NCBI RefSeq assembly: GCF_023634845.1
Contig: NZ_JAMLJL010000011.1
Span: 62,001 to 126,000, forward strand
Length of the DNA: 64,000 bases
Direction: 5' to 3'
DNA from: Flavobacterium amniphilum
Lineage (GTDB): Bacteria > Bacteroidota > Bacteroidia > Flavobacteriales > Flavobacteriaceae
Position numbers and translations under genes: made by a program. Below the pieces are notes generated by a model that was given only the letters and a program-made list of their open reading frames with translations, searched no databases and was not told where the DNA came from. This document shows, piece by piece, positions 21,572 to 36,543 of this stretch (positions within the stretch are counted from its first letter, which is position 1; the number at the start of each line of letters is the position of its first letter).

Positions 21572-21576
21572 CAAAT

Positions 21577-21605
21577 AAAGCTCTGAGAAATCAGGGCTTT
21601 TTTGT
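21577..21605 (+). terminator. Terminator of tRNA-Gln
   Basis: AAAGCTCTGA (21577-21586), a GAAA loop, then TCAGGGCTTT (21591-21600) and more T: a compact GNRA-looped hairpin 6 bp after the tRNA. Confidence 0.85.
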
Positions 21606-21628
21606 TTTTTATATATTTTTTATATTTG
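21601..21628 (+). promoter_or_regulatory. Candidate promoter of the lipoprotein gene
   Basis: TTTG (21601-21604), 16 bp, then TATATTTG (21621-21628), about 20 bp before the ATG at 21649. The spacing is slightly short and the -33 part overlaps the U-tract of the tRNA terminator. Confidence 0.4.
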
Positions 21629-21648
21629 GGTTAGCTAATTCGAACAGT

Positions 21649-22413
21649 ATGAAAAAAATAAGTATACTGATTCTCTGTTTTTTATTGTTTTCCTGTAAGG
21701 AAGAAAAAGCTGAAGAAAAGACAGAGGTGAAAACTGAAGAAGTATCTGCTGAGCAACCGGTTTTGAAAACGTATAATGGTTTTTTAAACGAATCTATTCC
21801 CTTTTTTATGCGTCTTGAATATTCAGATTCCGGAGTGAGCGGGGAATATGAATATGTTAAAGTGGGTAAGGTTGTCCGTTTAGAAGGTTATTTGGAAAAA
21901 GATTCGTTGTTTTTGAAGGAATTTGATGAGAAGAAAAATCATACTGCTACATTTAAAGGAGTTGTTTCAAAAAACCGTTCCGAAGTTTCCGGGAAATGGT
22001 TCTCCAATATAGCGCCTCATGTTTATGTGTTTAAAATGGGAGAAGGGAAGAAAGTCGTTAAGCGCAAGGAAGAAGTTGTTTTGGAAGGGGAGTATGAGAG
22101 TGCTTCTTATAGTGAGGGTGATGATGAAGTAGATGAAGAAGATGGAGATGGTGGTTATGTCGCTACACTTTCGATACGAAAGGAAACAGATACGAAGTAT
22201 TATTTTCAGATTTTAGTGGGGAGTACTAATTGTACCGGAGAAGTTGATGGTTATTTTGTGATTGATGAAAACGGTATGGGCAGGTATTCGTCAGAGGATT
22301 GCCGGGAACTGGTATTTAAATTCGGGAAAAATAAGGTAGAAGTAACGGAAAGCGACTGTGGCCTTCATGGTATGAGTTGTTCGTTTGCCGATACGTATGT
22401 AACGAATAAATAG
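21649..22413 (+). CDS. Lipoprotein of unknown function
   Basis: A 254-residue lipoprotein. MKKISILILCFLLFSCKEEK gives a lipobox with Cys at about residue 16, so the mature protein is membrane-anchored. A Glu/Lys-rich linker follows, then a beta-rich region with YNGFLNESIPFFMRLEY and GVVSKNRSEVSGKW. An acidic stretch (Glu/Asp/Gly near residues 160-170) precedes the C-terminal part, which has four cysteines (NCTGE, DCREL, DCGLHGMSC) that may pair outside the cytoplasm. I do not recognise the family. It stands alone between tRNA-Gln and a bidirectional terminator. Confidence 0.7.
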   Translation: MKKISILILCFLLFSCKEEKAEEKTEVKTEEVSAEQPVLKTYNGFLNESIPFFMRLEYSDSGVSGEYEYVKVGKVVRLEGYLEKDSLFLKEFDEKKNHTATFKGVVSKNRSEVSGKWFSNIAPHVYVFKMGEGKKVVKRKEEVVLEGEYESASYSEGDDEVDEEDGDGGYVATLSIRKETDTKYYFQILVGSTNCTGEVDGYFVIDENGMGRYSSEDCRELVFKFGKNKVEVTESDCGLHGMSCSFADTYVTNK

Positions 22414-22433
22414 CATGTATTTTTGATGAAAAT

Positions 22434-22465
22434 AAAAAAGGCCTTGATATTATCAGGGCCTTTTC
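22434..22465. terminator. Bidirectional terminator between convergent genes
   Basis: AAAAGGCC (22436-22443) pairs with GGCCTTTT (22457-22464), with additional TGATA/TATCA pairing inside. A-runs and T-runs on both sides serve the lipoprotein gene on the plus strand and the fbp operon on the minus strand. Confidence 0.85.
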
Positions 22466-22477
22466 TGTATAAAAGAT

Positions 22478-22954
22478 TTACAACCATTGTTTTTCTACTC
22501 CCGTTGCATCCAGAACATCGATCTCAAGAATAAACCTCATTTTTTCGGCTATCCGGAAAGCTTCTTCTTTGTCGTTGGTTTTGAAAAAGGTGATGTGTTT
22601 GTTTTTGTTGTAGAATACATTCAGCAGGATTATATCACTGGTGACGGATGTACTTGCTGTAACCACGGTAATTGTTTGTTTTTCTTTTGTTTTGAAAACA
22701 GAGACATAATCAAACTTCGGACACGGAATCCACTTTCCGAATTTTAATCTGAATAAGGATTTCATATTCCGGTAGGTTTTGTTGTCCAAATTTATTTCAG
22801 AACCTTCTTTGGTTATCAATCCCAAGCCTATTGCGATAAAAATAGAACCCATGAAGATGTTTTGGAAAAATCCCAAAATTCCTATTATCAGCACGAGATA
22901 TCCGAAAATCCTCTTGGGTAAAGGTGTTTCTTTTAAGTAGGTTATAATGCTCAT
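22478..22954 (-). CDS. Small membrane protein of unknown function
   Basis: A 158-residue protein with two hydrophobic segments near the start (FGYLVLIIGILGFF and IFMGSIFIAIGLGLIT), followed by a soluble part of beta character (SVFKTKEKQTITVVTASTSV). The last part reads NDKEEAFRIAEKMRFIL. Its ATG overlaps the fbp stop as TAATG, so it is translationally coupled to fbp. I do not recognise a family, and the link to sugar metabolism rests only on position. Confidence 0.6.
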   Translation of the reverse strand: MSIITYLKETPLPKRIFGYLVLIIGILGFFQNIFMGSIFIAIGLGLITKEGSEINLDNKTYRNMKSLFRLKFGKWIPCPKFDYVSVFKTKEKQTITVVTASTSVTSDIILLNVFYNKNKHITFFKTNDKEEAFRIAEKMRFILEIDVLDATGVEKQWL

Positions 22955-23961
22955 TATTTATTATTTGTCATAAACTCTTCTGCCTTTTCGACCATGTTAC
23001 GGCTTCCGCAAAAGAAAGGAACGCGTTGGTGCAGTTCAGTAGGTTGTATTTCCATGATGCGGCTGTAACCGTCAGAAGCTTTTCCGCCTGCCTGTTCGGC
23101 AATAAAAGCCATTGGGTTGCATTCGTATAACAAACGCAGTTTTCCTTTAGGAGCTTTTGAGCTGGTCGGGTAAAGGTAAATTCCTCCTTTGATCATGTTT
23201 CTGTGGAAATCGGAAACCAGACTTCCGATGTATCTTGAAGTATACGGACGGTCACCTTCTTCTGACTGACAATACTTGATGTAATCTTTTACACCTTGTG
23301 GGAAATGCACATAGTTACCTTCGTTGATCGAGTAAATTTTTCCGTCTTCTAAGTATTGCATGTTCGGATGTGAAAGGTAAAATGTTCCGATAGCCGGGTT
23401 TAAGGTAAATCCGTTAACGCCATGGCCGGTTGTGTATACCAGCATGGTTGAGGTTCCGTAAATCACATAACCTGCGGCCACCTGATTGACTCCGGGTTGC
23501 AGGAAATCTTCCAGTTGTACCGGTGTTCCCAGAGGAGTAACCCTTCTGTAAACAGAAAAGATGGTTCCTACCGAAACATTTACATCGATATTCGAAGAAC
23601 CATCCAAAGGATCCATTAATACGACATATTTGTTGTTGTGGCTGTTGTCTGATCCGGCAACCGTAATGAAATCGTCATTTTCTTCTGAGGCAATTCCGCA
23701 AACGATTTCCCTGTTGATCAGGGTTTGGATGAAAACTTCATTCGCGTAAACATCTAATTTCTGTTGGTCTTCGCCCTGAACATTCTGATCGCCTGCCGCG
23801 CCCACGATGTCAACTAATCCGGCCTTGTTTACTTTGTAGTTGACCACTTTTGCGGCTAAACGGATCGAGTTGATAATTCTGGATAATTCACCTGAAGAGT
23901 ATTGGAAATCATTTTGCTTTTCGATGATAAATTCACCAAGGGTTTTATTGCGTTCTTCCAT
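22954..23961 (-). CDS. fbp: Fructose-1,6-bisphosphatase class I
   Basis: A 335-residue gluconeogenic phosphatase that converts fructose 1,6-bisphosphate to fructose 6-phosphate in the cytoplasm. I chose the ATG at 23961 ([18 protein letters not shown]), which matches the family start; 13 upstream codons in frame are not conserved. The metal site is visible as [20 protein letters not shown], preceded by the Glu of CGIASEEND. The substrate-binding part includes [20 protein letters not shown] and [17 protein letters not shown]. The length is normal for the class. It is followed by a coupled small membrane-protein gene and lies divergent to the M48 peptidase. Confidence 0.97.
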
Positions 23962-24110
23962 GTAAGAAATCGTTGTAGTTAGTCCCGCAAATATCATCAT
24001 TTATTTTCAAAGATCCGGCATACTTGTTTTCTAATTTGCACGTTTTCAAAAAGAGAAGTGAATTAACAAAAAACTTGCAAACAGGTTGTTTTTATCACTT
24101 TAAGTTATTT

Positions 24111-24118
24111 TATCTTTG
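24111..24118 (+). promoter_or_regulatory. Candidate promoter -7 box of the M48 peptidase gene
   Basis: TATCTTTG fully matches TAnnTTTG, 22 bp before the ATG at 24141. A TTG lies 23 bp further upstream (24085-24087), which is at the long end of accepted spacing. Confidence 0.5.
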
Positions 24119-24140
24119 TTATTCAATAAAAAATACAATC

Positions 24141-24962
24141 ATGGAAACTAAAAAGATATTCTGTTCTGTTCTGTTATTGGGATTTTGCTCGTTGCAGGCC
24201 CAGATTAATTTAGGAGAAAAAGCGCTAGGAGCTTTGCAGAAAGGCGTTACCAGTTTTACATTCAGCGATGAAGATGCGGCTAAATTATCGAAAGAAGCTG
24301 TAGATAAAATGGATAAGGAAAATGTTGTGGCGGGACCTAAGGATCCTTATACTATCCGATTGAACAAACTGTTCGGTAAGCACAAAAATGAGGGCGGACT
24401 GGTTTTGAATTATAAAGTCTATAAAGTGAAAGAAGTTAATGCTTTTGCAACAGCAGACGGAAGTGTGCGTGTTTTTTCAGGCTTGATGGATATTATGGAT
24501 GACAATGAGTTGCTGGCGGTTATCGGTCATGAAATCGGCCATGTGATTAATCATGATTCGCGTGATGCTATTAAGGCAGCTTACCGTAATGAAGCTCTTT
24601 TGGATGCGGCGGGTTCTTCGTCAGACAAAGTGGCTAAAGTGACTGACGGGCAATTGGGTAAAATAGGGGCGGCTTTGGTAAACAATGCCCACAGCCGTAA
24701 GCAGGAAAGTGATGCCGATACCTATTCGTATGAATTCATGAAGCGTAATAAATATAATGTGAATGCGGTGGAATCTGCTTTTGCCATTCTGGCGAAACTG
24801 AATGAAGGAGCAGAATCCAATATCATTACCAAGATGATGAGTTCGCATCCTGATCCGAAAGACAGAGCCCAAAAAGCAAAAGAAAGAGCCGTGGCTGAAG
24901 GATTGTACAAACCGTATGTTAAGATTGTTCCTAAAAAAACGACTGCTAAAAAGAAAAAATAA
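24141..24962 (+). CDS. M48 family metallopeptidase (periplasmic)
   Basis: A 273-residue zinc peptidase. I chose the ATG at 24141, giving a signal peptide (METKKIFCSVLLLGFCSLQAQ); 39 upstream in-frame codons are not conserved. The zinc site is AVIGHEIGHVINHDSRD (HExxH near residue 136), with the third ligand Glu in SRKQESDADTYSYEF. SSHPDPKDRAQK near the end is typical of the Oma1/LoiP-like group, which degrades misfolded exported proteins. The C-terminus is very Lys-rich. The next gene begins 1 bp after the stop, so the two are probably an operon. Confidence 0.9.
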   Translation: METKKIFCSVLLLGFCSLQAQINLGEKALGALQKGVTSFTFSDEDAAKLSKEAVDKMDKENVVAGPKDPYTIRLNKLFGKHKNEGGLVLNYKVYKVKEVNAFATADGSVRVFSGLMDIMDDNELLAVIGHEIGHVINHDSRDAIKAAYRNEALLDAAGSSSDKVAKVTDGQLGKIGAALVNNAHSRKQESDADTYSYEFMKRNKYNVNAVESAFAILAKLNEGAESNIITKMMSSHPDPKDRAQKAKERAVAEGLYKPYVKIVPKKTTAKKKK

Positions 24963-24963
24963 T

Positions 24964-25437
24964 ATGATTATCCGAAAAGGAACCCAAAATGACATGGCCG
25001 ATGTGCTGGAGCTTATCCGTGAACTGGCTATTTTTGAAAAAGAACCTGATGCTGTTGTGATTACGGTTGGGGATTTAGAGCGTGACGGATTTGGAGAAAA
25101 TCCTTTATTCCAGACTTTCATTGCTGAAGAAGCCGGAGAGATTATCGGTATGGCATTGTATTACTACCGTTATTCGACCTGGAAAGGAAGAACCATCCAT
25201 TTGGAAGATTTGATCGTAAAAGCAGATAAGCGCGGGACAGGAGCCGGTTTTGCCCTGTACCAGGAAATTATCAAGCAGGGTAAAAAGGACAATGTACGCC
25301 GTATTGAATGGAATGTGCTGGATTGGAACCAGCATGCCATAGATTTTTATGAAAAATCAGGAGCTGTGGTTCTTGATGACTGGAGTGTGGTTCAAATGAG
25401 CGAAGAAGGAATCAGTGCATTCCTGAATAAATTATAA
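24964..25437 (+). CDS. GNAT family N-acetyltransferase (diamine acetyltransferase-like)
   Basis: A 157-residue acetyl-CoA-dependent acetyltransferase. I chose the ATG at 24964 (MIIRKGTQNDMADVLEL), 1 bp after the M48 stop. The acetyl-CoA loop is KRGTGAGFALYQEI near residue 85. The pattern IIGMALYYYRYSTWKGRTIH followed by LEDLIVKADKRG, and the ending WNVLDWNQHAIDFYEKSGA, resembles the spermidine/spermine N1-acetyltransferase-like branch. A polyamine or thialysine substrate is thus plausible but inferred. No link to the preceding peptidase is known. Confidence 0.88.
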   Translation: MIIRKGTQNDMADVLELIRELAIFEKEPDAVVITVGDLERDGFGENPLFQTFIAEEAGEIIGMALYYYRYSTWKGRTIHLEDLIVKADKRGTGAGFALYQEIIKQGKKDNVRRIEWNVLDWNQHAIDFYEKSGAVVLDDWSVVQMSEEGISAFLNKL

Positions 25438-25505
25438 ATATTAACAACAATCAAAACCATGAGGCTTCGGTTATGGGGCCGGCGTGTTTTGAAATTTAAA
25501 CAACT

Positions 25506-26756
25506 ATGAGAATTTTTAAATTTGGAGGAGCTTCTGTGAGAGATGCTGCCGGTGTGAAAAACGTTTTTGACGTTCTGCAAAAAGTAGGTTATGAGGAAGT
25601 ATTATTAGTAGTTTCCGCAATGGGAAAAACTACGAATGCTTTGGAAGTAGTGATAAAGAACTATTTCGAGAAGTCTTCCCAGTTGAATGCATCGGTTCAG
25701 GAAATAAAGAAGTACCATAACCAGATTCTCCTTGATTTGTTTGAAGAAGAACACGAGGTTTTCCTTGATGTGCGTGACCATTTTGCTGACCTGGAGTATT
25801 TCTTACGCAGTAACAAATCGCCAAATTACAACTTCGTATATGATCAGATTGTGAGTTACGGGGAGATTATTTCCACTACCATCGTGAGTCACTACATGAG
25901 TTCGCAGGGAATTAAATCCGAGTGGATTGATGTGCGCAATTATATTAAAACCGATAATACATACCGTGATGCCAATGTGAACTGGGATACTACCCAAAAA
26001 GCCATTGCCAAGATCGCTAAAAAGAAATCGTTGTTTGTGACCCAGGGATTTGTAGGTGCTGATGAAAACGGATTTACGACTACTTTGGGTCGTGAAGGTT
26101 CAGATTATACCGCGGCTATTTTTGCTTATTGTTTAAATGTTGAAAGCGTAACGATCTGGAAAGACGTTCCCGGAGTTATGAATGCCGATCCGCGTTATTT
26201 TGAAAACGCTACCCTTTTAAACCAGATTTCATACCGTGAAGCCATCGAGCTAGCTTTCTACGGTGCTAGTGTAATCCATCCGAAGACGTTACAGCCATTA
26301 CAGCGAAAAGAGATTCCTTTGTATGTGAAATCCTTTATTAATCCTTTATTGCCAGGAACGAGTGTTTCAAAGGGCGAAGATTTAGAGCCGAAATTGCCTT
26401 GTTTTATCGTGAAGAAAGACCAGTTGCTGATTTCATTGTCATCTATTGATTTTTCATTTATTATGGAAGAGAACATTAGTGAAATTTTCGGATTGCTTCA
26501 CCAGCACAAAATCAGAGTAAGTTTAATCCAAAATTCGGCTATCAGTTTCTCTGTTTGTGTGGAAGATAAATTCGGAAACTTTAAAGAATTGCATAAAACG
26601 CTCGCGAAGAAATTCAAAGTATCTTACAATGAAAACGTTTCGTTATATACCATCCGTCATTTTGATGATAAAGCCATGAAAATGGTGGAACAGAACAAAA
26701 CAGTTTTATTACGTCAGATGAGCCGTGAAACACTTCAGGTGGTAACGAAAGAATAA
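25506..26756 (+). CDS. Aspartate kinase (monofunctional)
   Basis: A 416-residue aspartokinase catalysing the first step from aspartate to lysine, threonine and methionine. The N-terminal kinase domain starts MRIFKFGGASVRDAAGVKN (KFGGASV motif at 5-11). It includes GFVGADENGFTTTLGREGSD and TIWKDVPGVMNADPRYF, then SYREAIELAFYGASVIHPKT. The C-terminal about 120 residues form an ACT-like region, suggesting feedback control by an amino acid. There is no fused homoserine dehydrogenase. It follows the acetyltransferase after 68 bp. That gap contains an unusually GC-rich patch near 25472-25490 but no clear promoter. Confidence 0.95.
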   Translation: MRIFKFGGASVRDAAGVKNVFDVLQKVGYEEVLLVVSAMGKTTNALEVVIKNYFEKSSQLNASVQEIKKYHNQILLDLFEEEHEVFLDVRDHFADLEYFLRSNKSPNYNFVYDQIVSYGEIISTTIVSHYMSSQGIKSEWIDVRNYIKTDNTYRDANVNWDTTQKAIAKIAKKKSLFVTQGFVGADENGFTTTLGREGSDYTAAIFAYCLNVESVTIWKDVPGVMNADPRYFENATLLNQISYREAIELAFYGASVIHPKTLQPLQRKEIPLYVKSFINPLLPGTSVSKGEDLEPKLPCFIVKKDQLLISLSSIDFSFIMEENISEIFGLLHQHKIRVSLIQNSAISFSVCVEDKFGNFKELHKTLAKKFKVSYNENVSLYTIRHFDDKAMKMVEQNKTVLLRQMSRETLQVVTKE

Positions 26757-26863
26757 ATAATCGATTAACGGTTTATTTAGTCGGTAATTAGCCGGTAAAA
26801 ATGAATTTTTGGCATATTTTTAGTAGTAATTTTATAATGTAAAACATTTAAAAACAGATTATT

Positions 26864-27490
26864 ATGAAAAAAATACTGACATTAAGATTGTTTTTAACTG
26901 GATTTTTGTTAATCCAAGTTGCTGTTTTTGCACAGAATGAAAAAGTAAAAATTTTTCAGAGCAAATCGGATGATGCCTGTTTAATTGTATTTCCGAACAG
27001 CCCGGAACCTTTAATGGTTATGACCAGCAGTACCGGTGGTTGTACCGTAGTGAAAACCATGGCGGCAGATGATTGGACCGAAATGTCGAGTTCCACAGTT
27101 GTTACCACTTGTGTTGCAGAGCCAAAACCGGTAGCTGAAGCTGTTACCAGAGGAGTGAAATCACCAAGAGATGCTGCATCCGGTTTGGCTACAGGAAAAA
27201 GACAGCATAAGCCTATTATGTTGAGTAGTCTTACATTGGATGCTTTGGATCCTGATTCAGACGGTGACGGTATTGAAGTTTATTCTTTTTCATGGGGTAT
27301 GTCGAATGCGGGAGCGATGAGTTCCGGTGCATCCGCTTCCAACGGAAAAAAAGCCGGATATAATGTGAAAGAGAATGTGAAAAGAACAGTGTCTCCAGGT
27401 GGTGGCTGCTGTAGTGACGGTGTTTGTACCGTAACTGTTTCCGTTGATAAGAAGCATACAAAATCAGGACATGTGACATTGCTGAAATAA
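26864..27490 (+). CDS. Secreted protein with CC-x-x-G-x-C motif, paralogue 1
   Basis: A 208-residue exported protein with signal peptide (MKKILTLRLFLTGFLLIQVA...FAQ). I do not recognise a family. It shares several segments with the gene at 27636: KPIMLSSLTLDAL, FSWGMSNAGAMSS and the C-terminal GGGCCSDGVCTVTVSVDKKH ending in HVTLLK. It is richer in Gly/Ser and has a longer middle (residues about 95-125, basic with RGVKSPRDAASG). The CC-x-x-G-x-C cluster suggests a disulfide or metal site. A weak -7 box TATTTTTA lies at 26815-26822, and a small hairpin follows the stop. Confidence 0.7.
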   Translation: MKKILTLRLFLTGFLLIQVAVFAQNEKVKIFQSKSDDACLIVFPNSPEPLMVMTSSTGGCTVVKTMAADDWTEMSSSTVVTTCVAEPKPVAEAVTRGVKSPRDAASGLATGKRQHKPIMLSSLTLDALDPDSDGDGIEVYSFSWGMSNAGAMSSGASASNGKKAGYNVKENVKRTVSPGGGCCSDGVCTVTVSVDKKHTKSGHVTLLK

Positions 27491-27512
27491 AAACACAAAT
27501 CCGGTTGTGTTT
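27491..27512 (+). terminator. Hairpin after paralogue 1
   Basis: AAACACAA (27491-27498) pairs perfectly with TTGTGTTT (27505-27512) around a 6-nt loop, directly at the stop codon of the upstream gene. The U-tract is short, so it may be a weak terminator or attenuator. Confidence 0.55.
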
Positions 27513-27635
27513 CAATCCATCAGAGGATGAATGCACCGTTGAATACTTGTATTTTGTAGAATAACCAATTGATTTTGAGTTTTTTACTTTAAAATTCCTT
27601 ATATTTAATTCGCTTAAATATTTACCAGAGGATTT

Positions 27636-28193
27636 ATGAGAACAAAATTCAGATTCTATTGGTTATTTTTTTTCATCCTGTTGGGCTGTTTTGACTGTTT
27701 TTCACAAGTTAATGATCGGAGTATCAGGATTTTTGAGAAGAAGAAAGTAGAAAATCCGGTAGATGCTTCCTCTTGGAATGACCATCTTTTGGTTTTTCCG
27801 TCTCCTGATTCTTATTTGATGGTAGAAATTAATGACCAGAAGTCCTGGATTGTTGATGTGGTCAATTGGAATGAATGGGTTGAATTGCCGGAAAACACGC
27901 TGGTGATGATACAACCGGTTGCCATAGGCCGCAGATCGGAAGTTATTCCGCTTCATAAAAGGGATTATAAGCCTTTCCTGCTTTCCAGTTTTACATTGAA
28001 TTCTTTTGCCAAAGAAGATTTTGAATCCAATATGTTTTCACTTTCCTGGGGTATTGCGGAAAACGGCGTCATCAGTGCGCAGACATCCAAAAAAATCATT
28101 TCCAATAATTGCTGTACCAACGGAACCTGTTCGTTGATTATTTCCTTCAATAAGAAGAATTCCAAAATTGAGCACATTACACTTCCCAATTGA
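27636..28193 (+). CDS. Secreted protein with CC-x-x-G-x-C motif, paralogue 2
   Basis: A 185-residue exported protein; the N-terminus FYWLFFFILLGCFDCFSQ is a signal sequence. It is a diverged relative of the preceding gene. KPFLLSSFTLNSF matches KPIMLSSLTLDAL, FSLSWGIAENGVISA matches FSWGMSNAGAMSS, and NNCCTNGTCSLIISFNKKN ending HITLPN matches the other C-terminus. The N-terminal half (HLLVFPSPDSYLMVEINDQ) also aligns with CLIVFPNSPEPLMVMTSS. Function is unknown. It is followed after 62 bp by the large outer-membrane protein on the same strand, which has its own -7 box. Confidence 0.7.
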   Translation: MRTKFRFYWLFFFILLGCFDCFSQVNDRSIRIFEKKKVENPVDASSWNDHLLVFPSPDSYLMVEINDQKSWIVDVVNWNEWVELPENTLVMIQPVAIGRRSEVIPLHKRDYKPFLLSSFTLNSFAKEDFESNMFSLSWGIAENGVISAQTSKKIISNNCCTNGTCSLIISFNKKNSKIEHITLPN

Positions 28194-28225
28194 ATTTGGT
28201 AATAGCTTTTTTGGCTTAATTACAA

Positions 28226-28233
28226 TATCTTTG
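28226..28233 (+). promoter_or_regulatory. Candidate promoter -7 box of the outer-membrane protein gene
   Basis: TATCTTTG fully matches TAnnTTTG, 22 bp before the ATG at 28256. No TTG occurs at the usual -33 distance. Confidence 0.45.
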
Positions 28234-28255
28234 GAACTTTTGAGTTTTTTTTAAT

Positions 28256-31200
28256 ATGGCTAAAAGTCAGGCTTTTTACGTAGTTTTTCTTTTTTTTCTA
28301 GTATCGCTGAATGTATTGGCACAAGAAACTCCGTACCATTTAAAAAAAATCCCGGTTACAAAAGACACCATCCGTATTGACAGTGTGAGTATCAATCAAA
28401 GTTTTTTTAAAGTACTTGATTCCAAAGGTGAAGTTATAGATACTGCTTTTTATAAGGTTGATTTCAAAAAAGCGGTTTTGGTTTTTAAAAGTGACTATGA
28501 AAGCAAAGATACTTTAACCGTCCGTTATCTTAAGTTTCCTGAATTCCTTACTAAAGAATATACAATTTATGATAAAAGCAGGGTTGTAAGTAACGATAAA
28601 GGACTGACTTCATTGTACAAAGTGTCGAACGCATCCGTGCGGAAAAATGCTCCGTTTGAAGGCTTGAATACTTCGGGGAGCATTACCAGGGGAATTACTA
28701 TCGGTAACAACCAGAATGCTTCGGTAAATTCTAACCTGGACTTGCAGATAACCGGGAAACTCTCTGATAAAGTAAGTTTGAGAGCTTCCATCCAGGATAG
28801 TAATATTCCGTTACAGGAAGGAGGTTATTCCCAGCGGTTAGATGAATTTGACCAGATTTTTATTGAACTTTTTTCGGATAAGTGGAATATCCGGGCCGGG
28901 GATTTGTTTTTGGAAAACAGAAAATCAAAGTTCCTGAATTTCAATAAAAAAGTGCAGGGTCTGGCGACACATTTTACTTTTGGGACACCTGAAAAGAAAA
29001 CTGAGGTATATGCATCGGGCGCATTGGTGCGCGGGCAATATGCAAAGAGTACTTTTACCGGTCAGGAAGGGAATCAAGGACCTTATAAGTTAAAAGGACC
29101 GAACGGTGAATTGTACATTCTTGTTATTTCCGGTTCTGAGCGGGTTTATGTAAACGGAATACTGCTCAAGCGTGGGGAAAACAATGACTATATCATTGAC
29201 TACAATGCCGGGGAAGTCATTTTTACTTCGCTTTTTCCGATTACTTCGGAAATGCGTATTTCGATAGAGTATCAGTATTCCGACCGCAATTATACCCGTT
29301 TTGTGACCTATGCCGGTGTTAATCATGAGCAGGAAAAGTGGAGCCTTTCCGGTTATCTTTATTCGGAGAATGATGTGAAAAACCAACCCGTACAGCAAAA
29401 TCTTTCGGAAGAGCAGGTTGCTGTTTTAGCCGATGCCGGCGATGATCCCAATCAGATGACTGCGCCTTCAGCTGTTGAAGAATCCTATTCGGAGAATAAA
29501 ATCCTGTATAAAAAAGTGATTATAGATGCTGTTGAGGTTTTTGAATATTCCACAAATCCCAATGACGTTTTGTATAATGTAAAATTCAGTCTGGTAGGGA
29601 ATAATTTGGGGAATTACAGACAAAAAAGTACCATCACAAACGGACGTGTATTTGAGTATGTGTCGCCTATAGGAGGTGTTCCGCAAGGAAATTATGAGTC
29701 GTTTATCCGTTTGGTTGCACCTACAAAAATACAATTGGCTACTCTGCTGGGAAAATATAATCCCAGTGAAAAAACCACTGCCGATTTTGAGTTGGCCGTA
29801 AGCAACAACGATAAAAATCTATTCTCAGGAATTGATGATGGGGATAATCACGGTTTAGCCGGGAAGATTAATTTCAGACAGCGTTTGTGGACTAAAAAGT
29901 GGATAATAGACGGTTTTGGGAATTACCAGTTAATTCAGAAGAATTTTAAAAGTATTGAACGTTTGTTTTCGATTGAGTTTGATCGGGACTGGAATTTATC
30001 GAATCCTACGGGGAATCAATTATTAGCCGTTACCGGATTGCAATTTGCATTGGGTAACCAGTCCAATTGGAAGTATCAGTTGGAAGTGCTGGATTTCTCC
30101 GAGAGCTTTTCAGGAAAAAGAAATGTGATTTCCGGGTTTTACAAGACTGGTAACTGGATTGTTACGAATGATGGGAGTTGGATGAAAAGTGACAGCAATT
30201 TGGCTACCTCTGATTTTTTACGGAATCAAACCCTCACAAAATTGCATCATAAAAAGAACTGGATAGGCGGGAGTATTCGTTTGGAAGACAATCAGGAGAA
30301 AGATAAAGTAACGAACCAATTATCTGCTTTAAGCCAGAAGTTCACCGAGATGGGTGCTTTTATTGGCCGTGGAGATTCGACTAAGGTATATGTGGAATTG
30401 GGTTATCTTAACCGTGTAAATGACAGTTTGCAATCAGGCCAACTGGAACGGGTGAATACCTCCCGGTCGTATTATATCAAATCAAAGTTAATCCAGACCG
30501 ATAAAAGCGATTTGTCGGTTTTTGTCAACTACCGTAATTTGAAATTCAAGGATGGCAGGGATGATGAACCTTCGCTGAATTCCAGAATTTTGTACAATGA
30601 CCGTTATTTTAACCAAATGGTGCAGCTTACCGCGGCGTATGAAACCACTTCCGGAACATTGCCACAGCAGGAATTTACTTTCTTGGAGGTTGAGCCTGGA
30701 CGCGGTATTTATGCCTGGAACGATTACAACAATAACGGGATTCAGGAAATACAGGAATTTGAAGTGGCGCTTTTCCCGGATCAGGCCAAGTATGTGAAAG
30801 TCTTTTTGCCAAATCAGATTTTTGTGAAAACCCACCAGAATAAATTTTCCCAATCGATTACTTTGAATCCTGTTGTGTGGCAAAATAAGAGCGGATTAAA
30901 AAAAATTGCCTCCTTTTTTTACAATCAGACTTCTTATTTGATTGAAAGAAAAATAAAACGTGACGAAGCTAATTTCGATTTGAACCCGTTTGCTAAAAGC
31001 GGCGATGATTTATTAGGGTTGAATTCAAGTTTCCGGAACAGTTTGTTTTACAACCGCGGTAAGCAAAAGCATTCGGTGACCTATACTTTTATTACCAATG
31101 AGTTGCGTTCGCTGCAAAGTTCTGGCGTGCAGGAAGTGGAAAATAAATCCCATCAGTTGCAATATTTGCATTTGTACCGGAAAACATGGTTGTTTTCTGT

Positions 31201-31663
31201 GTCCGGAAAGAGTTCGGAAAGTTCCAACACTTCAGAAAATTATGCTTCCAGAAATTTCAGTATCAGCGGTAAGCAATTTGAGCCGAAGATTTCGTATCTG
31301 TTTAATAAAAATGCCAGCCTGGATGTATTTTATGAATTCCAGGACAAGGAAAATAAAATCAACGGACAGGAATCGCTGCAACAAAATAAGTTTGGCTTAT
31401 CGTTTAATCTTGCGAGTGAAAAGAAAATAACCCTTAACGGAGAATTTTCTTTGGTAAGCAATAAATTTTCCGGAAGTGAATTTTCGCCTGTTGGATTTCA
31501 AATGCTGGAAGGACTTCAGGCCGGTAAAAACAGTACCTGGCGTTTACTACTCCAAAAAAACCTGACCCAGTTTTTAGATATCAATGTGAATTACCAAGGA
31601 AGGAAAAGTGAAGGAATTAATGTGATTCATACAGGTAATATTCAGTTAAGAGCCTATTTTTAA
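28256..31663 (+). CDS. Large predicted outer-membrane beta-barrel protein, uncharacterised
   Basis: A 1135-residue exported protein with signal peptide MAKSQAFYVVFLFFLVSLNV...AQ. A conserved block at residues about 135-235 reads GSITRGITIGNNQNASVNSN, DLQITGKLSDKVSLRASIQD and RAGDLFLENRKSKFLNFNKK. A second block at about 275-340 contains GPNGELYILVISGSERVYVN and YIIDYNAGEVIFTSLFPIT. From about 340 to the end, alternating polar/aromatic strands and turns dominate, ending in an aromatic residue (QLRAYF), as expected for an outer-membrane beta-barrel. No TonB plug or T9SS sorting domain was seen. The family is known to me only as an uncharacterised Bacteroidota protein. The tandem CC-motif paralogues lie immediately upstream. 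Confidence 0.75.
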   Translation: MAKSQAFYVVFLFFLVSLNVLAQETPYHLKKIPVTKDTIRIDSVSINQSFFKVLDSKGEVIDTAFYKVDFKKAVLVFKSDYESKDTLTVRYLKFPEFLTKEYTIYDKSRVVSNDKGLTSLYKVSNASVRKNAPFEGLNTSGSITRGITIGNNQNASVNSNLDLQITGKLSDKVSLRASIQDSNIPLQEGGYSQRLDEFDQIFIELFSDKWNIRAGDLFLENRKSKFLNFNKKVQGLATHFTFGTPEKKTEVYASGALVRGQYAKSTFTGQEGNQGPYKLKGPNGELYILVISGSERVYVNGILLKRGENNDYIIDYNAGEVIFTSLFPITSEMRISIEYQYSDRNYTRFVTYAGVNHEQEKWSLSGYLYSENDVKNQPVQQNLSEEQVAVLADAGDDPNQMTAPSAVEESYSENKILYKKVIIDAVEVFEYSTNPNDVLYNVKFSLVGNNLGNYRQKSTITNGRVFEYVSPIGGVPQGNYESFIRLVAPTKIQLATLLGKYNPSEKTTADFELAVSNNDKNLFSGIDDGDNHGLAGKINFRQRLWTKKWIIDGFGNYQLIQKNFKSIERLFSIEFDRDWNLSNPTGNQLLAVTGLQFALGNQSNWKYQLEVLDFSESFSGKRNVISGFYKTGNWIVTNDGSWMKSDSNLATSDFLRNQTLTKLHHKKNWIGGSIRLEDNQEKDKVTNQLSALSQKFTEMGAFIGRGDSTKVYVELGYLNRVNDSLQSGQLERVNTSRSYYIKSKLIQTDKSDLSVFVNYRNLKFKDGRDDEPSLNSRILYNDRYFNQMVQLTAAYETTSGTLPQQEFTFLEVEPGRGIYAWNDYNNNGIQEIQEFEVALFPDQAKYVKVFLPNQIFVKTHQNKFSQSITLNPVVWQNKSGLKKIASFFYNQTSYLIERKIKRDEANFDLNPFAKSGDDLLGLNSSFRNSLFYNRGKQKHSVTYTFITNELRSLQSSGVQEVENKSHQLQYLHLYRKTWLFSVSGKSSESSNTSENYASRNFSISGKQFEPKISYLFNKNASLDVFYEFQDKENKINGQESLQQNKFGLSFNLASEKKITLNGEFSLVSNKFSGSEFSPVGFQMLEGLQAGKNSTWRLLLQKNLTQFLDINVNYQGRKSEGINVIHTGNIQLRAYF

Positions 31664-31727
31664 TTTATAAATGCAGATTGTAAAAAATTTAGTATTTTTA
31701 GTATGTTAACATTTAAACAATCTGAAA

Positions 31728-32396
31728 ATGAAAAAGTTACTTGTATTGTGTTTCGTGTTTATTTTCTCAAACACATTCTTTGCCCAGGAAACTACTGCTG
31801 AAAAGAAAACAAAAGCAGAGATAGAAAAAGCCGAAAAAGCCAAAGCTGCAAAAGAGAAGCGTGAAAAAGCAAAAGCGGCCAAGGCTAAAAAAGAATTAGC
31901 CGATGCCAAAAAAGAAAAGGCAGCAGCTACAAAAGAAAAGGCGGAAGCGAAGAAAGAAAAAGCAGCGGCAACAAAAGAGAAAGCTGATGCAACCAAAGCA
32001 AAGGCGAAAGAAACTGCTGCCAAAAAAGAGAAAGAAGTTAAAACAAAAGCGAATAGTGCTTCTGAAACAGGTAAGACAAAATCTACAGCAGGTAAAGCAA
32101 AAGCAACTGCCAATAAAGCCGATGCAAAAGTCAAAGACGAATCAGATAAGGCAAAAGCCAAAGCAAAAACGACCAAAGCAGAAGCAAGTGATAAAGTAGC
32201 AAAAACCAAAACTACTGCTAAAAAAGCGGTAGCCAAAAAAGAAAGAGAGACGACCGAGAAAGCCAATCCGAACACTACTGATAAAGTAATCGGGAAATAC
32301 AAAGAAAGAAAAGTGTTTGAAGGACCGAGAGGCGGTAAATATTACATCAATAAAAACGGAAACAAGACGTATATTGATGATGATCAGTTAGAATAA
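31728..32396 (+). CDS. Secreted Lys/Ala-rich protein with C-terminal GPRGGKYY module
   Basis: A 222-residue protein. A signal peptide (MKKLLVLCFVFIFSNTFFAQ) is followed by about 155 residues of nearly pure Lys, Ala, Glu and Thr. These make imperfect repeats such as KAKAAKEKREKAKAAK and AAATKEKAEAKKEKAAATKE, likely a long charged helix. The last about 35 residues form a separate module, FEGPRGGKYYINKNGNKTYI, resembling the PBCV-type basic adaptor domain (GPRGGKYY followed by a G-K-K-Y-I pattern). It could bind an anionic surface polymer or DNA outside the cytoplasm; that is inference. The promoter region has an inverted repeat CAGATTGT (31674-31681)/ACAATCTG (31717-31724) flanking a TATTTTTA box. 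A shared bidirectional terminator follows. Confidence 0.75.
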   Translation: MKKLLVLCFVFIFSNTFFAQETTAEKKTKAEIEKAEKAKAAKEKREKAKAAKAKKELADAKKEKAAATKEKAEAKKEKAAATKEKADATKAKAKETAAKKEKEVKTKANSASETGKTKSTAGKAKATANKADAKVKDESDKAKAKAKTTKAEASDKVAKTKTTAKKAVAKKERETTEKANPNTTDKVIGKYKERKVFEGPRGGKYYINKNGNKTYIDDDQLE

Positions 32397-32414
32397 TTCC
32401 AATACAGCAAACAA

Positions 32415-32446
32415 TAAAAAAGCCCAGGTTTATCCCGGGCTTTTTT
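32415..32446. terminator. Bidirectional terminator at the end of the sus operon
   Basis: AAAAAAGCCCAGG pairs with CCCGGGCTTTTTT around a short loop, with A and T runs on both sides. It separates the Lys/Ala-rich gene (plus) from the last gene of the susCDE-amylase operon (minus). Confidence 0.85.
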
Positions 32447-32475
32447 GATTTAACAAATTTAACTATTTCAAACAA

Positions 32476-35355
32476 CTATTCTTTGATCAATTTGATTGTT
32501 CCCTGTTGGTTTGTTTCATTTGTAAGCTTGACAAAATATAGTCCGCTGTTCAGGTTTTCCACAGAGAAGTTGTGTTGAGCCGCAAAACCACCCTTAAATG
32601 TTTTTACCAACTGACCGGTCAGATTGTATATTTCTACTGTTTTGACAGCTTCCGATAAGTTGAAATAACCATTTGAAGGATTAGGATACAAAACAATGGA
32701 ATTGGCTAAATTGAAACCCTCATTGTTTAAGCTTTGTGCGGGTTGGTTTCCGTAAATTCTGAAGCCGCCAGAGGGAACAGAGATTACAGCCTGTGTATCG
32801 GTCACATTCATCGAAGTTCCGTCTATTAAATTATACCAAGTACCCGCATAAGGAAAGTTAGGGTTGATGGTTAAATTAGCGACAGAAAAATTAGCCAGAA
32901 CTACCACATTTTTAAGGGTTGAAGCCGGTAAGGCATTATCGAAAACATACAGGCGTTGTTTTACAGTGCTTCCGTCAGTATTGATAGTGTAATCGCCTTC
33001 AAAAACAGCCTCCTGGGTTTTAAGGATATTGAACTTAGTCCAATTATTGTAAATGGTATTCCGTGTTGGATCAGTAAGCCAGTTTTCTGTCCATTGCGGT
33101 TGCGGTTTTGTGGCCAGTTTGCAATCTCCTGAAGTAGGGTCGCTTTCAGTGTTTACCGTTCCGTTGCTACAGGTATAAATGGAGTCATCCATGCCTAAAT
33201 CAGCAAAATGCCAGATCATTTTCGGACCCGGAACCAAAATAGAAACGGCTCCGATGGCTGACATACGGTTTAAAGTATTCGGGAGATTATTGTATACAGG
33301 AAAAGCTCCTGCGGCATTTCCAGTTGTCATAGCTGTATAAACCAAACGTTCTTTGTCATGGCTTTCCGGATATCCCAACAGTCTTTTTCCAAGGAAAGAA
33401 GCTCGGCTTTTATGTCCGATGCCGGTTATATCGGCTCCGGCAACCCCTTTTATAAGCGGTTCATACTGAGAAGTCATTTCACCCCACATCATAACCCCTT
33501 TGCTTGGGTTTTCCGCTATTCGGTAATTTGCCCATTCTTTTTCTTCGTTTTCGGTGCCTAAGTGCTCGAAAATTGCATAATGTGTTGGGTCTGCAGTCCA
33601 GCAATTGTCTACATATTCTTTTAGAACTGCAACGCGGTCAGCCTGATAACTGTTTGTACACGATTCATCAGCAGCTGAACAGTTCTGAGTAAAACCTTTG
33701 GTTAAATCCCATCTGAAACCATCAATTTTGAATTCCTGTATCCAGTATTTAGTTACTTTTTTTACGTATTCTTTGGTATAAGCCGAGGCATGGTTGAAAT
33801 CGGATCCAACACTGTAACTGTGTCTGGCTACCGTATTGAAATATGGATTTTCAGTGCTTGGGTCACCCCAGCCGTCACCATCAGGATCATTCATCCACAT
33901 ACGCACCATGGGATTTCTTCCGAAAGCATGGTTAAAAGCAATATCCAGAATAACAGCAATTCCATTTGAATGACAGAGGTCTACGAATTCTTTCAATTTT
34001 GCCGAAGGTCCGTAATGCTTGTCCAAAGCCATGTGGAAAGAAGTATTGTATCCCCAGCTTTCGTTACCTTCAAATTCCATTACCGGCATTAATTCGATGG
34101 CGTTTATTTTCAGGTTTTTGAAATAACTGATTTTGTCTATTAAATCCTGAAAATTCCTGTCGGAATCAAAATCCCGGATTAGTGCTTCGTAGACGATTAA
34201 GTCTTCTTTTTTAGGTTTTGTAAAAGAAGTGTTTATCCATGGATAAGCCGTTTGTCCGGTTTGTAAAACGGTAACTTCCCTTTCCTGACCGGCAGGATAA
34301 ACTGGCATATTCGGATAGGTTGAAACCGGTGTCCAGGGATCATCATAAGGAGATAATACCAATGTTGAATAAGGATCGGCAGCTTTGACAAAGGAAGGTG
34401 AATTTGCTATTGGCGTCTGGTCTACCACCCAATATTGGTAATTCTCTGATTGTCCCGGAGTTAATCCCGTTAACTCCAGCCAGAATTTTCCTGAAACAGG
34501 ATCTTTTTTCATGGCATAAGCCGTTGATGGTTGGTAATTATTGAAACTACCTGCTACATATACAAAATCTTTCCCCGGGGCGGTCAAAACCAAAGTCGCC
34601 CGTGTAGCGTCACCCGGATTGTAATTGATTCCGTCTTCAAGTCCGGCTGGGATTGCCTGTGAAATAGTTCCCGGGTTGATGATGACATTGAATTTTTTGG
34701 AAAATGTTACAACACCTTGTGTAATAATGAGTTCGTATGCTTTGTTAGTGGTGATGTTTGTGTCGTTGTAGCTATAGGAAGAACCGGAAAAAGTATTGAT
34801 TTGTGTTCCATTGGCCAATAAAATGTAATTAGCATTTCCATTAGTGTTGTTGGCTGTAATATTGAGGTTCCCGCCTGACGAAATTATGGTATTTGAATTT
34901 AATCCGGGAGAAGTCAGATTTGCCTGAAAAGTACCAACTTCTGCATAAATATCCTGTGATTTTTTATCACCGGTTCCGTTTTTTGCTTTAATCAGAAAGC
35001 CAATCCTGCCAATTCCTGTCCGGCTGTAAAAAGTGGTAGGGGAAAAAGTTATGGTATAGGTGTCGTTTCCTGAATTGTAGGTTAAGCGGTTAGCTTCATT
35101 AGAAGCTGTCCATGTTCCGTTGGTAGGGCAATCTAAACTGTTTGTATCATTGATATCGTAAGACCACGACCATAAATACAGGGCGTTTCCGGCTACTCCC
35201 CAAGTGCCTTCATTAATTGAAGATCCCTGAAAAGTCAAAGTAACGGATTGATTTTCGTCGAATGTGCCTGGTGAAACACTATAGCTTACTGTTTGCTGTT
35301 GTGACCAAGATACCATCGATATGAAAAACAATATGAATAAAATAATTTTTTTCAT
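32476..35355 (-). CDS. T9SS-secreted GH13 family alpha-glucan hydrolase
   Basis: A 959-residue surface enzyme for starch or maltodextrin. The signal peptide is MKKIILFILFFISMVSWSQQ. It is followed by immunoglobulin-like beta domains (to about 230) and a CBM48-like E-set region (about 240-335; LVLTAPGKDFVYVAGSFNNY). The GH13 barrel spans about 385-770: region I VILDIAFNHAFGRNP near 473, region II GFRWDLTKGF with the catalytic Asp near 551, region III IFEHLG with the acid/base Glu near 600, region IV YPESHDKERLVY near 664. Region IV reads ESHD rather than the ENHD/DNHD of classic amylases, closer to branching or debranching enzymes. The last about 75 residues are a type A T9SS sorting domain (YPNPSNGYFNLS ... 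GLYFVKL). It replaces SusG in this locus. Confidence 0.9.
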   Translation of the reverse strand: MKKIILFILFFISMVSWSQQQTVSYSVSPGTFDENQSVTLTFQGSSINEGTWGVAGNALYLWSWSYDINDTNSLDCPTNGTWTASNEANRLTYNSGNDTYTITFSPTTFYSRTGIGRIGFLIKAKNGTGDKKSQDIYAEVGTFQANLTSPGLNSNTIISSGGNLNITANNTNGNANYILLANGTQINTFSGSSYSYNDTNITTNKAYELIITQGVVTFSKKFNVIINPGTISQAIPAGLEDGINYNPGDATRATLVLTAPGKDFVYVAGSFNNYQPSTAYAMKKDPVSGKFWLELTGLTPGQSENYQYWVVDQTPIANSPSFVKAADPYSTLVLSPYDDPWTPVSTYPNMPVYPAGQEREVTVLQTGQTAYPWINTSFTKPKKEDLIVYEALIRDFDSDRNFQDLIDKISYFKNLKINAIELMPVMEFEGNESWGYNTSFHMALDKHYGPSAKLKEFVDLCHSNGIAVILDIAFNHAFGRNPMVRMWMNDPDGDGWGDPSTENPYFNTVARHSYSVGSDFNHASAYTKEYVKKVTKYWIQEFKIDGFRWDLTKGFTQNCSAADESCTNSYQADRVAVLKEYVDNCWTADPTHYAIFEHLGTENEEKEWANYRIAENPSKGVMMWGEMTSQYEPLIKGVAGADITGIGHKSRASFLGKRLLGYPESHDKERLVYTAMTTGNAAGAFPVYNNLPNTLNRMSAIGAVSILVPGPKMIWHFADLGMDDSIYTCSNGTVNTESDPTSGDCKLATKPQPQWTENWLTDPTRNTIYNNWTKFNILKTQEAVFEGDYTINTDGSTVKQRLYVFDNALPASTLKNVVVLANFSVANLTINPNFPYAGTWYNLIDGTSMNVTDTQAVISVPSGGFRIYGNQPAQSLNNEGFNLANSIVLYPNPSNGYFNLSEAVKTVEIYNLTGQLVKTFKGGFAAQHNFSVENLNSGLYFVKLTNETNQQGTIKLIKE

Positions 35356-35370
35356 ACTTATAGATAAATT

Positions 35371-35398
35371 AAAAAGGCTGGGTTAACCAGCCTTTTTT
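35371..35398 (-). terminator. Hairpin terminator between susE and the amylase gene
   Basis: AAAAAGGCTGG (35371-35381) pairs with CCAGCCTTTTT around the loop GTTAA, followed on the minus strand by a T-run. It lies between the susE stop (35408) and the amylase start (35355), inside an otherwise continuous operon. It may reduce rather than abolish read-through. Confidence 0.8.
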
Positions 35399-35407
35399 GG
35401 TGTGTTT

Positions 35408-36532
35408 TTAGTTAAAAGTTATGGTCTTGTTAACTGTATCAATTTTAAATCTTTTTGTTGCAGTTGTGCCAACATATCTAAAGTTACTGTCACCATCATT
35501 AGCGTTAACAAAATCTGCAGAAATGGTATAACCGTCAGCGATGTATCCCGGGAAATTTCTGTTAGGAGAACCCCAGCTGTCACCTCCGTCGTTAGCAAAC
35601 CAAACTCTGAATGCTTCATTGTTCTTTAATTCGACAGGAACTTCATATATTCCGGTGTCAATTTTTCCAAGTTCAGTTTCGTTGTCACCGGCCCAGCTCC
35701 ATCCGCCCGGAGTTGCAGCACCAACCAGCCAGTAAGAACTATTCGTGTTTGATCCCTGGAAAGCAGTGATGGTTTTGTTGTTTTCATCTATTTTCAAACG
35801 ATGGGTACCAGGTGTTCCGGTAAATCTGAAATTACTGTCACCGTCGTTTGCATTGACTAATGTTGAGTTGATTACATATCCGGCACCAGTATAGTATGGA
35901 TAATTTCTTCCTGATCCCCAATCTCCTTCTGTTGTGAAAAAACGGAATGAATCATTAGCAAAATCAACTGTTGAAGTTAAAACGTTGTCATTACAGAATA
36001 ATACGACAGGACTGTTCCAGTTCCATCCTGCACCTACCAAACCTGCACCAACTGCATATTGATTCAGGCATCCAAAAGGAGTAACCGAAAGAGTAATGCT
36101 GTTTGAATACTGAGGTTCTGCACCTGTAGTGCCAACAGTGGCTTTGATTCTTACATCAATTGTTCCTTCCGTGAATGGCGCTACTCCCAATAACAAAGAA
36201 TTAAGATTTAGTTCAGCAACATTAACCGTTGCATTTGTTGTAGGAGAAGTTGTAATGTCTACCGGCGCGGCAAAATTTGTTCCGTTTTTAGCAAATTGAA
36301 CTGTGTAGGTTACAGCAGTAGGAACAGTGTAAATTGCAGGTTCCCATGTGAAAGTAACGGCCGGATTATTAGGAGTCGCTTCTGATAAAATTATTGAAGT
36401 TCCTGTTGAAGGCGTAACGATTTCGAAAGACGCGTCTTCAGGTTCCAGAATTTTGAAATTATTTTCATCTTCACACGAATTCAATATCAATGCGATTATA
36501 CTGAGAGATAAATATTTGAATATATTTTTCAT
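35408..36532 (-). CDS. SusE-like outer-membrane starch-binding lipoprotein
   Basis: A 374-residue lipoprotein. MKNIFKYLSLSIIALILNSC gives a lipobox at Cys20. An N-terminal SusE domain (about 25-150) has the TPSTGTSIILSEATPNNPAV pattern followed by VTFTWEPA, the usual SusE opening. Two tandem carbohydrate-binding-like repeats follow, each with a WxW...G aromatic start (AGWNWNSPV and GGWSWAGDN) and a near-identical ending NANDGDSNFRF / NANDGDSNFRY, then TxxRxKID-NKTIT. The two repeats probably hold starch helices at the surface. The gene is 12 bp after susD and precedes the terminator at 35371-35398. Confidence 0.88.
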   Translation of the reverse strand: MKNIFKYLSLSIIALILNSCEDENNFKILEPEDASFEIVTPSTGTSIILSEATPNNPAVTFTWEPAIYTVPTAVTYTVQFAKNGTNFAAPVDITTSPTTNATVNVAELNLNSLLLGVAPFTEGTIDVRIKATVGTTGAEPQYSNSITLSVTPFGCLNQYAVGAGLVGAGWNWNSPVVLFCNDNVLTSTVDFANDSFRFFTTEGDWGSGRNYPYYTGAGYVINSTLVNANDGDSNFRFTGTPGTHRLKIDENNKTITAFQGSNTNSSYWLVGAATPGGWSWAGDNETELGKIDTGIYEVPVELKNNEAFRVWFANDGGDSWGSPNRNFPGYIADGYTISADFVNANDGDSNFRYVGTTATKRFKIDTVNKTITFN

Positions 36533-36543
36533 AGCTAATGAAT

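What the first reader, a model, noticed from the sequence alone, without database searches (positions are those of the whole stretch)
26864..31663. Tandem unknown secreted paralogues with a CC-x-x-G-x-C motif next to a large uncharacterised outer-membrane protein
Two adjacent secreted proteins share at least three segments (LLSS/MLSS-x-TL, FSWG/LSWG, CC-x-x-G-x-C-x(5-6)-S-x-N/DKK) but match no family I know. Directly after them, on the same strand, is a 1135-residue predicted barrel with two conserved periplasmic-looking blocks. Small cysteine-rich exported proteins beside an outer-membrane protein could be substrates, plugs or surface partners. The functional link is inference from position only.
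Basis: partly seen in the sequence, partly recalled or inferred. Interest (0 to 1): 0.55.

Follow-up and report, generated by a model that had tools for sequence, protein, structure and literature searches.

The report
Exported protein carrying secretion-tube loop sequences
One of two neighbouring exported bacterial proteins contains, almost letter for letter, a loop of the tube protein (Hcp) of a bacterial injection machine, in both of its known versions and without the rest of that protein, so a piece of a molecular machine may have been reused elsewhere.

Summary
Two adjacent exported ORFs (P0001, P0002) are paralogues (E 8e-20), followed by a 1135-aa predicted barrel. None reaches a Pfam or NCBIfam cut-off. 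The barrel link is not supported: the barrel is in 365 of 398 genus genomes, a full-length relative of the pair in one besides the window's (G230, P0002 type); 23 of the 30 closest barrel loci have aspartokinase directly upstream.

The surprise lies in P0001. It holds the extended-loop region of the type VI tube protein Hcp in both subtype versions (SPRDAASGLATGKRQHKP; IEVYSFSWGMSNAG), in series and without a recognisable Hcp barrel. Nineteen residues are identical to an exported Cellvibrio protein while codons agree no better than chance there. Exported proteins with the same segments in other orders occur in Flavobacteriales, Ferruginibacter, an Ignavibacteria MAG and Cellvibrio. P0002 and its orthologue lack the SPRD segment. 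I infer, without proof, a portable contact module on an exported scaffold; decay from an exported Hcp is nearly as likely.

The parts
26864..27490 (+). P0001, 208-aa exported protein with two Hcp-loop-like segments
27155..27214 (+). segment VKSPRDAASGLATGKRQHKP (residues 98-117): SPRD version of the Hcp extended-loop region; 19 residues identical to exported Cellvibrio proteins L033 and L035
   Evidence: profile A3, whose rows do not include P0001 but were found through it, hits here in the own genome at E 1.4e-5
27272..27349 (+). segment IEVYSFSWGMSNAGAMSSGASASNGK (residues 137-162): SWG version of the same Hcp region
   Evidence: (Pfam T6SS_HCP E 0.0017, below cut-off)
27350..27394 (+). KAGYNVKENVKRTVS (residues 163-177): resembles a segment near the N-terminus of the exported mosaics and, by eye, the C-terminus of SWG-type Hcp; weak alone
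   Evidence: score 52 against L020; 5 of 200 shuffles reach it; phmmer domain score -0.4
27407..27427 (+). CC-x-x-G-x-C motif of P0001 (residues 182-188)
27636..28193 (+). P0002, 185-aa exported paralogue without the SPRD segment and with only a degenerate SWG segment
28110..28130 (+). CC-x-x-G-x-C motif of P0002 (residues 159-165), inside the stretch that resembles VISTDDCPNGTCTVVASWS of mosaic L020
   Evidence: score 54; 1 of 200 shuffles reaches it
28256..31663 (+). P0003, 1135-aa predicted outer-membrane barrel; conserved neighbour of aspartokinase, judged not part of the paralogue system

Best explanation
P0001 and P0002 are small exported proteins of one rare family, placed between aspartokinase and an unrelated, nearly universal barrel gene. 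P0001 carries two versions of the extended-loop region of the T6SS tube protein Hcp, one like each of two Hcp subtypes, and possibly a third Hcp-like tail, with no recognisable Hcp barrel (these sequence statements are shown). I infer that the loop works here as a portable contact module: in Hcp it makes loop-to-loop contacts between stacked rings, and on an exported scaffold it would let copies stick to each other or to other loop-bearing exported proteins at the cell surface or in the periplasm. P0002, without the SPRD loop, would be the plain subunit of the pair. The mechanism is inference.
For: Best ungapped scores against 9 Hcps: P0001 75 (residues 137-162) and 69 (86-121), above all 200 shuffles (max 63); P0002 41 (reached by 2.5% of shuffles); P0009 nothing above the 95% level. 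Against 11 Hcps P0001 scores 101; the next of 43 window ORFs of 150 aa or more scores 49. In an alignment of 9 Hcps the SPRD segment falls in columns 65-80, WSWGMSNSGS in 59-68 and GKVNVQDLS in 78-86, i.e. one region in alternative versions; P0001 has two versions in series. Nineteen residues identical to exported Cellvibrio proteins, with identical codons 7 of 19 against 6.3 expected for L033. In one Hcp1 the extended loop (Asp40-Arg56) makes loop-loop contacts between rings and mutating two of its residues stops stacking (passages of PMC4650826); loop L2,3 differs between Hcp types (passages of PMC5874247). Exported proteins with the same segments in other orders. An Ignavibacteria member passes the cut-offs of both CarboxypepD_reg and T6SS_HCP.
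Against: P0001 was found in one genome only. The unbiased database scores are modest: Pfam E 0.0017 below cut-off, PDB sequences E 0.27 and 0.54. The yardstick Hcps and the mosaics were themselves found through P0001 or its relatives, so the shuffle tests and E 1.4e-5 overstate independence; only one of the nine Hcps is annotated as such (L123). Exported, nearly full-length Hcps exist (L132, L148), and L148 joins an SWG and a GLPTGKRQHKP stretch in one loop, which fits decay from such a protein. The P0001 model is useless (pLDDT 39), that of mosaic P0004 weak (53; no Foldseek match at E 0.001). That the segments lie in the published loop is inferred from alignment. Four of 13 codon comparisons (L009a, L010, L020, L028; not independent) share more codons than expected, p 0.009-0.042 uncorrected. 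There is no binding or assembly evidence, and gain in P0001 cannot be told from loss in P0002.
Confidence: 0.33

Rival explanations
1. P0001 is a decayed descendant of an exported Hcp-domain protein, and the loop segments remain only because they evolve slowly; no contact function is implied.
For: Exported proteins with fuller Hcp pieces in Hcp order exist: Cellvibrio L033-L036, L131, L132 and L148; L148 has an SWG and a GLPTGKRQHKP stretch in one chain. An archaeal MAG protein has several Hcp-like domains in tandem (L037, by eye).
Against: In P0001 the SPRD version precedes the SWG version with about 20 residues between, unlike L148. P0002 and P0009, with the same N-terminal part, lack the SPRD segment. 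No other T6SS_HCP match was found in the own genome at E 1.
Confidence: 0.32
2. The exported loops bind or block the Hcp tube of an attacking neighbour (decoy or shield).
For: Loop likeness to Hcp at protein level, the export signal (by eye), and no other Hcp match in the own genome.
Against: Nothing was tested; P0001 resembles both subtypes, and no link to T6SS defence genes was looked for.
Confidence: 0.1
3. The pair works with the downstream barrel as plug, substrate or surface partner.
For: Same-strand adjacency in the window, and in G230 for the P0002 type. A different exported mosaic family is followed by a 381-398-aa barrel-like gene in 9 of 14 loci.
Against: Barrel in 365 of 398 genomes, full-length pair relatives in 2; in 23 of 30 close loci nothing of 90 aa or more lies between aspartokinase and barrel. 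The two kinds of barrel-like protein were not compared.
Confidence: 0.08
4. The likeness to Hcp is chance or low-complexity resemblance.
For: Both segments are short, the Pfam score is below cut-off and PDB sequence matches are weak.
Against: Shuffles, window control, 19 identical residues.
Confidence: 0.03

Closest known systems
Hcp / TssD, T6SS tube protein (Pfam PF05638, TIGR03344)
   Same: P0001 residues 137-162 and 86-121 resemble the extended-loop region of two Hcp subtypes.
   Different: Below cut-off (19.1 against 23.5 bits); only 26 of 129 profile positions matched; export signal by eye; two loop versions in one chain; the rest of the barrel sequence is not recognisable.
Exported Hcp-segment mosaics of Flavobacteriales (alignment A4; no name found)
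   Same: Shared segments SPRDAASGL-x-TGKRQHKP, SWG, KAGYNVK-x-NVK and C-x-x-G-x-C; signal peptide by eye.
   Different: Order differs: KAGYNVK is near the N-terminus there and near the C-terminus in P0001; C-x-x-G-x-C precedes SWG there and follows it in P0001; no MAINEKG-tail match in the window genome at E 0.01.
Exported Cellvibrio Hcp-like proteins (L033-L036)
   Same: KSPRDAASGLATGKRQHKP identical over 19 residues in L033 and L035; export signal by eye.
   Different: They keep an Hcp-like start and the stretch after the loop (D-K-x-S/T-P); L033 passes PF05638 (41.6 bits).
Carboxypeptidase regulatory-like / prealbumin-type beta-sandwich (PF13620)
   Same: One mosaic-like protein (L060) passes this cut-off beside T6SS_HCP; the weak P0004 model is mostly strands.
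   Different: P0001 and P0002 show no match.

Membership tests
Hcp / T6SS_HCP (PF05638) | score over the curated cut-off | tested here: not met
   P0001 19.1 bits against 23.5; P0002 no match
Hcp / T6SS_HCP (PF05638) | match over the whole domain, i.e. the beta-barrel | tested here: not met
   profile positions 18-43 of 129 only; local segments only
Hcp / T6SS_HCP (PF05638) | hexameric ring that stacks into a tube | not testable with these tools
   P0001 model pLDDT 39
Hcp / T6SS_HCP (PF05638) | T6SS genes nearby | tested here: inconclusive
   the ORF list of 20000-40000 was only read by eye: aspartokinase, barrel, SusC/SusD-like and metabolic genes, nothing I recognised as T6SS; no profile search for T6SS genes was run
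Exported Hcp-segment mosaics (A4) | SPRD segment | tested here: met
   profile A3 (rows without P0001, but found through it) E 1.4e-5 in the own genome
Exported Hcp-segment mosaics (A4) | same order of segments | tested here: not met
Exported Hcp-segment mosaics (A4) | C-terminal MAINEKG tail | tested here: not met
   no match to A7 in G000 at E 0.01; P0001 ends SGHVTLLK
CarboxypepD_reg (PF13620) | score over cut-off | tested here: not met
   no match for P0001 or P0002 up to E 1
Known fold for mosaic relative P0004 | clear structural match | tested here: inconclusive
   best Z 5.4 on a pLDDT 53 model

The most novel reading that the evidence does not exclude
The extended loop of Hcp is a free-standing, portable peptide module used outside type VI secretion: several lineages of exported proteins have taken it up repeatedly, in both subtype versions and in changing order, because the exact peptide itself mediates assembly or recognition at the cell surface. 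The pair P0001/P0002 would be one duplication in which one copy has the module and the other does not.
Probability: 0.24. Interest if true: 0.82.

Novelty: new variant of a known kind. Interest (0 to 1): 0.57.

Why it matters
Hcp loops are studied as parts of a secretion tube. If the same peptide is kept at protein level in exported proteins without the tube fold, the loop has a function of its own that can be tested directly with P0001 against P0002. A large survey of Hcp genes dropped Hcp domains under 70 aa and genes with a PEP-CTERM signal (passage of the methods of PMC8262886), so mosaics with short matches would have been filtered out there.

Tried and rejected
Barrel partnership: not supported. 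Known family for the barrel: no Pfam or NCBIfam cut-off; PDB sequences gave seven chance-level rows for P0003 (E 0.68-0.71) and none for its six-row profile. Weak Pfam and NCBIfam rows for P0001/P0002 (for example streptolysinS E 0.0054, pPIWI_RE_REase E 0.009) were taken as chance because they are far below cut-off.

Mobile or viral origin of the segments: 262 viral stretches matched a pattern of A3 but none encodes a relative; no viral match of the degenerate SPRD pattern; no plasmid match for P0002 up to E 1 (P0001 was not searched there). Phage records: 1 for P0001 (E 0.6), 2 for P0004 (E 1e-4 and 9e-4). Plasmids: 15 records for P0004; those annotated under the match are Hcps. Recent DNA copying: codons agree about as expected in 9 of 13 comparisons, with a nominal excess in 4, so not supported across phyla and not excluded within Bacteroidota.

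The first genome-contig scan with A1 found no relative. Structures: P0001 model useless; P0004 model weak; its best structural neighbours (Z up to 5.4) are scattered beta-rich domains. No Hcp was among the rows shown, which excludes nothing. Promoter and terminator scans gave a promoter-like site before P0001 (26809-26838, 11 of 12) but no more sites than shuffles (5 against 5.0); I drew nothing from it.

Papers: no paper holds the string DAASGLPTGK. Searches for exported or mosaic Hcp listed nothing whose title or abstract start describes such proteins. Only listings were seen, except passages of PMC4650826, PMC8262886 and PMC5874247.

Rows left out or faulty: A4 omits L007/L027 (undetermined bases), L022 (in-frame stop), L026 (no clear start) and copies of rows already in it; its last row (L009) is the part after the stop of the gene seen in L022. 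In one search L127 was mis-framed by my script (three residues), so that yardstick had two Hcps, not three. One search read minus-strand loci in the wrong direction and was replaced. One search printed 20 proteins; L130, L140 and L145 slipped through its pattern.
Full report
What is there. The three ORFs are as described. P0001 and P0002 are paralogues at 25% identity, E 8e-20. No curated cut-off in Pfam or NCBIfam is reached by any of the three. Both small proteins begin with a hydrophobic stretch that reads as a signal peptide (by eye).

Distribution. With P0002 alone, 1 of 100 genomes (the window's own) has a match at E 0.001. With the two-row profile A1, 12 of 398 genus genomes match at E 0.01, the window's included. 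Besides it only G230 matches over most of the length. That gene lies between aspartokinase and the barrel, as in the window, and is 39% identical to P0002 and 24% to P0001. Seven of the other ten genomes (G336, G208, G364, G044, G101, G356, G242) match through segments of larger exported proteins; G122, G113 and G204 look like chance or broken stretches. The barrel P0003 is in 365 of 398. In the 30 closest loci, window included, the nearest listed upstream ORF is aspartokinase in 23, another ORF in 5, and a P0002-type gene in 2 (ORFs of 90 aa or more). tblastn on the upstream 1560 bases gave, outside these two, one row at E 0.87.

The Hcp segments. Pfam gives T6SS_HCP for P0001 at E 0.0017, below cut-off, over residues 135-160. 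phmmer against PDB sequences gives weak matches of residues 90-123 to Hcp3 and 133-163 to Hcp1 (E 0.27 and 0.54). These are the unbiased scores. Against 9 proteins that read as canonical Hcps (one, L123, annotated as such) the two segments score 75 and 69, above all of 200 shuffles (max 63), while P0002 reaches 41 (2.5% of shuffles) and P0009 nothing above the 95% level. Against 11 such Hcps P0001 scores 101, and the next of 43 window ORFs of 150 aa or more scores 49. These Hcps were fetched through relatives of P0001, so the tests show likeness rather than an unbiased search result. A profile of five exported relatives finds the SPRD segment in the own genome at E 1.4e-5; its rows exclude P0001 but were found through it. 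The own genome has no other T6SS_HCP match at E 1.

Same loop twice. In an alignment of nine Hcps the SPRD segment of one subtype (columns 65-80) lies where the other has WSWGMSNSGS (59-68) and GKVNVQDLS (78-86), so they are alternative versions of one region. P0001 has the SPRD version at 98-117 and the SWG version at 137-162. A third segment, KAGYNVKENVKRTVS, matches the exported mosaics (score 52, reached by 5 of 200 shuffles) and is weak alone. One exported, nearly full-length Hcp (L148) joins an SWG and a GLPTGKRQHKP stretch in one loop, so mixing of the versions is not unique to P0001.

Exported mosaics. Relatives found in genus genomes and in a pattern scan of the named genome collection are proteins of about 200-260 aa, exported by eye. 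They combine the same segments in another order: KAGYNVK or GYDLKKNVK near the N-terminus, one or two SPRD segments, GKVNVQD, C-P-x-G-x-C, SWG, and a MAINEKG tail. Fourteen named loci carry the family: Flavobacterium, Lutibacter, Aequorivita, Halomarinibacterium, Ferruginibacter and records named only Flavobacteriaceae or Bacteroidetes. Three of five members tested pass PF05638, but only over profile positions of about 28-72. A neighbouring exported gene family has other Hcp segments (for example TEKQHYTIKMTNAD against TEKQHYTIKLTNAN of a Bacteroidota Hcp, 0 of 200 shuffles). Cellvibrio, an Ignavibacteria MAG and unnamed Bacteroidota (L131, L147) have further combinations. In 345 genomes of the phylum, 32 match the SPRD profile A6 at E 0.01, the window genome (part of the profile) included. 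Of 20 proteins that one search printed, 16 read as canonical Hcps without a signal and 4 (L131, L132, L147, L148) as exported. The MAINEKG profile matches 1 of 345.

Protein-level sharing. VKSPRDAASGLATGKRQHKP is 19 of 20 identical to Cellvibrio L033, and 19 residues are identical without a break in L033 and L035. Identical codons are 7 of 19 for L033, against 6.3 expected from codon usage (p 0.45). In 4 of 13 comparisons, not independent, the excess is nominally significant (L009a 0.013, L010 0.016, L020 0.042, L028 0.009; uncorrected), so closer DNA kinship with other Bacteroidota is not excluded.

How it may work. In one Hcp1 the extended loop Asp40-Arg56 makes contacts between the loops of stacked rings, and mutating two loop residues stops dodecamer formation (passages of PMC4650826). 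Loop L2,3 differs between Hcp types and was needed for effector delivery by two Hcps of an E. coli (passages of PMC5874247). That P0001's segments correspond to this loop follows from alignment, not from a structure. My inference is that an exported scaffold with this loop can self-associate or dock on other loop-bearing proteins. Decay from an exported Hcp that kept its slowest part is nearly as likely. The models give little help: P0001 pLDDT 39; P0004 pLDDT 53, mostly strands, with residues 101-158 (SPRD to GKVNVQD) below 50. One mosaic-like protein passes both CarboxypepD_reg and T6SS_HCP cut-offs, which would fit a beta-sandwich scaffold with Hcp loops.

Known or new. P0001 is not an Hcp: cut-off and coverage fail. 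It shares segments with, but is not a full member of, the exported mosaics. I found no description in the searches named under Tried and rejected. A published Hcp survey removed domains under 70 aa and genes with a PEP-CTERM signal (passage of PMC8262886), which would hide mosaics with short matches. I rate it a new variant of a known kind, with a more novel reading left open.

Noticed in passing
L048 5643-8840 (Euryarchaeota MAG): A 1065-aa ORF whose C-terminal part carries KRGYDYYK, APRDAASGLPTGKRQH and MAINEKGLPGEKKPKK and ends in GHVSLLK (P0001 ends in GHVTLLK): the same short segments in an archaeal protein of other build.
   Followed up: no
   Followed up: no
L041 around 8001-8063 (Sphingobacteriaceae MAG): A low-complexity protein of about 106 aa, exported by eye, with the tail MAINEKGLPGEKKPAKTTT, otherwise unlike the mosaics.
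   Followed up: partly
L037 641-5164 (Thermoplasmata MAG): A 1507-aa protein, apparently exported, with several Hcp-like domains in tandem (read by eye).
   Followed up: no
L019-L032: In 9 of 14 loci the mosaic gene is followed by a 381-398-aa barrel-like gene; one Flavobacterium example has no Pfam match over cut-off. In 6 of 14 it is preceded by a small exported gene family with other Hcp segments.
   Followed up: partly
L042, L053 (Acidobacteria MAG): Two Hcps of one MAG end in KAGYDVKKGQKV and KAGYDIKKGQKV, close to the KAGYNVK segment of P0001.
   Followed up: no
window 31728-32396 (+): Lys/Ala-rich exported protein after the barrel with a C-terminal PBCV_basic_adap match (21.0 against 20.4 bits); similar genes appear after the barrel in several relatives (by eye).
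   Followed up: partly
L022 844-1587: The mosaic gene has an in-frame stop near codon 46.
   Followed up: no
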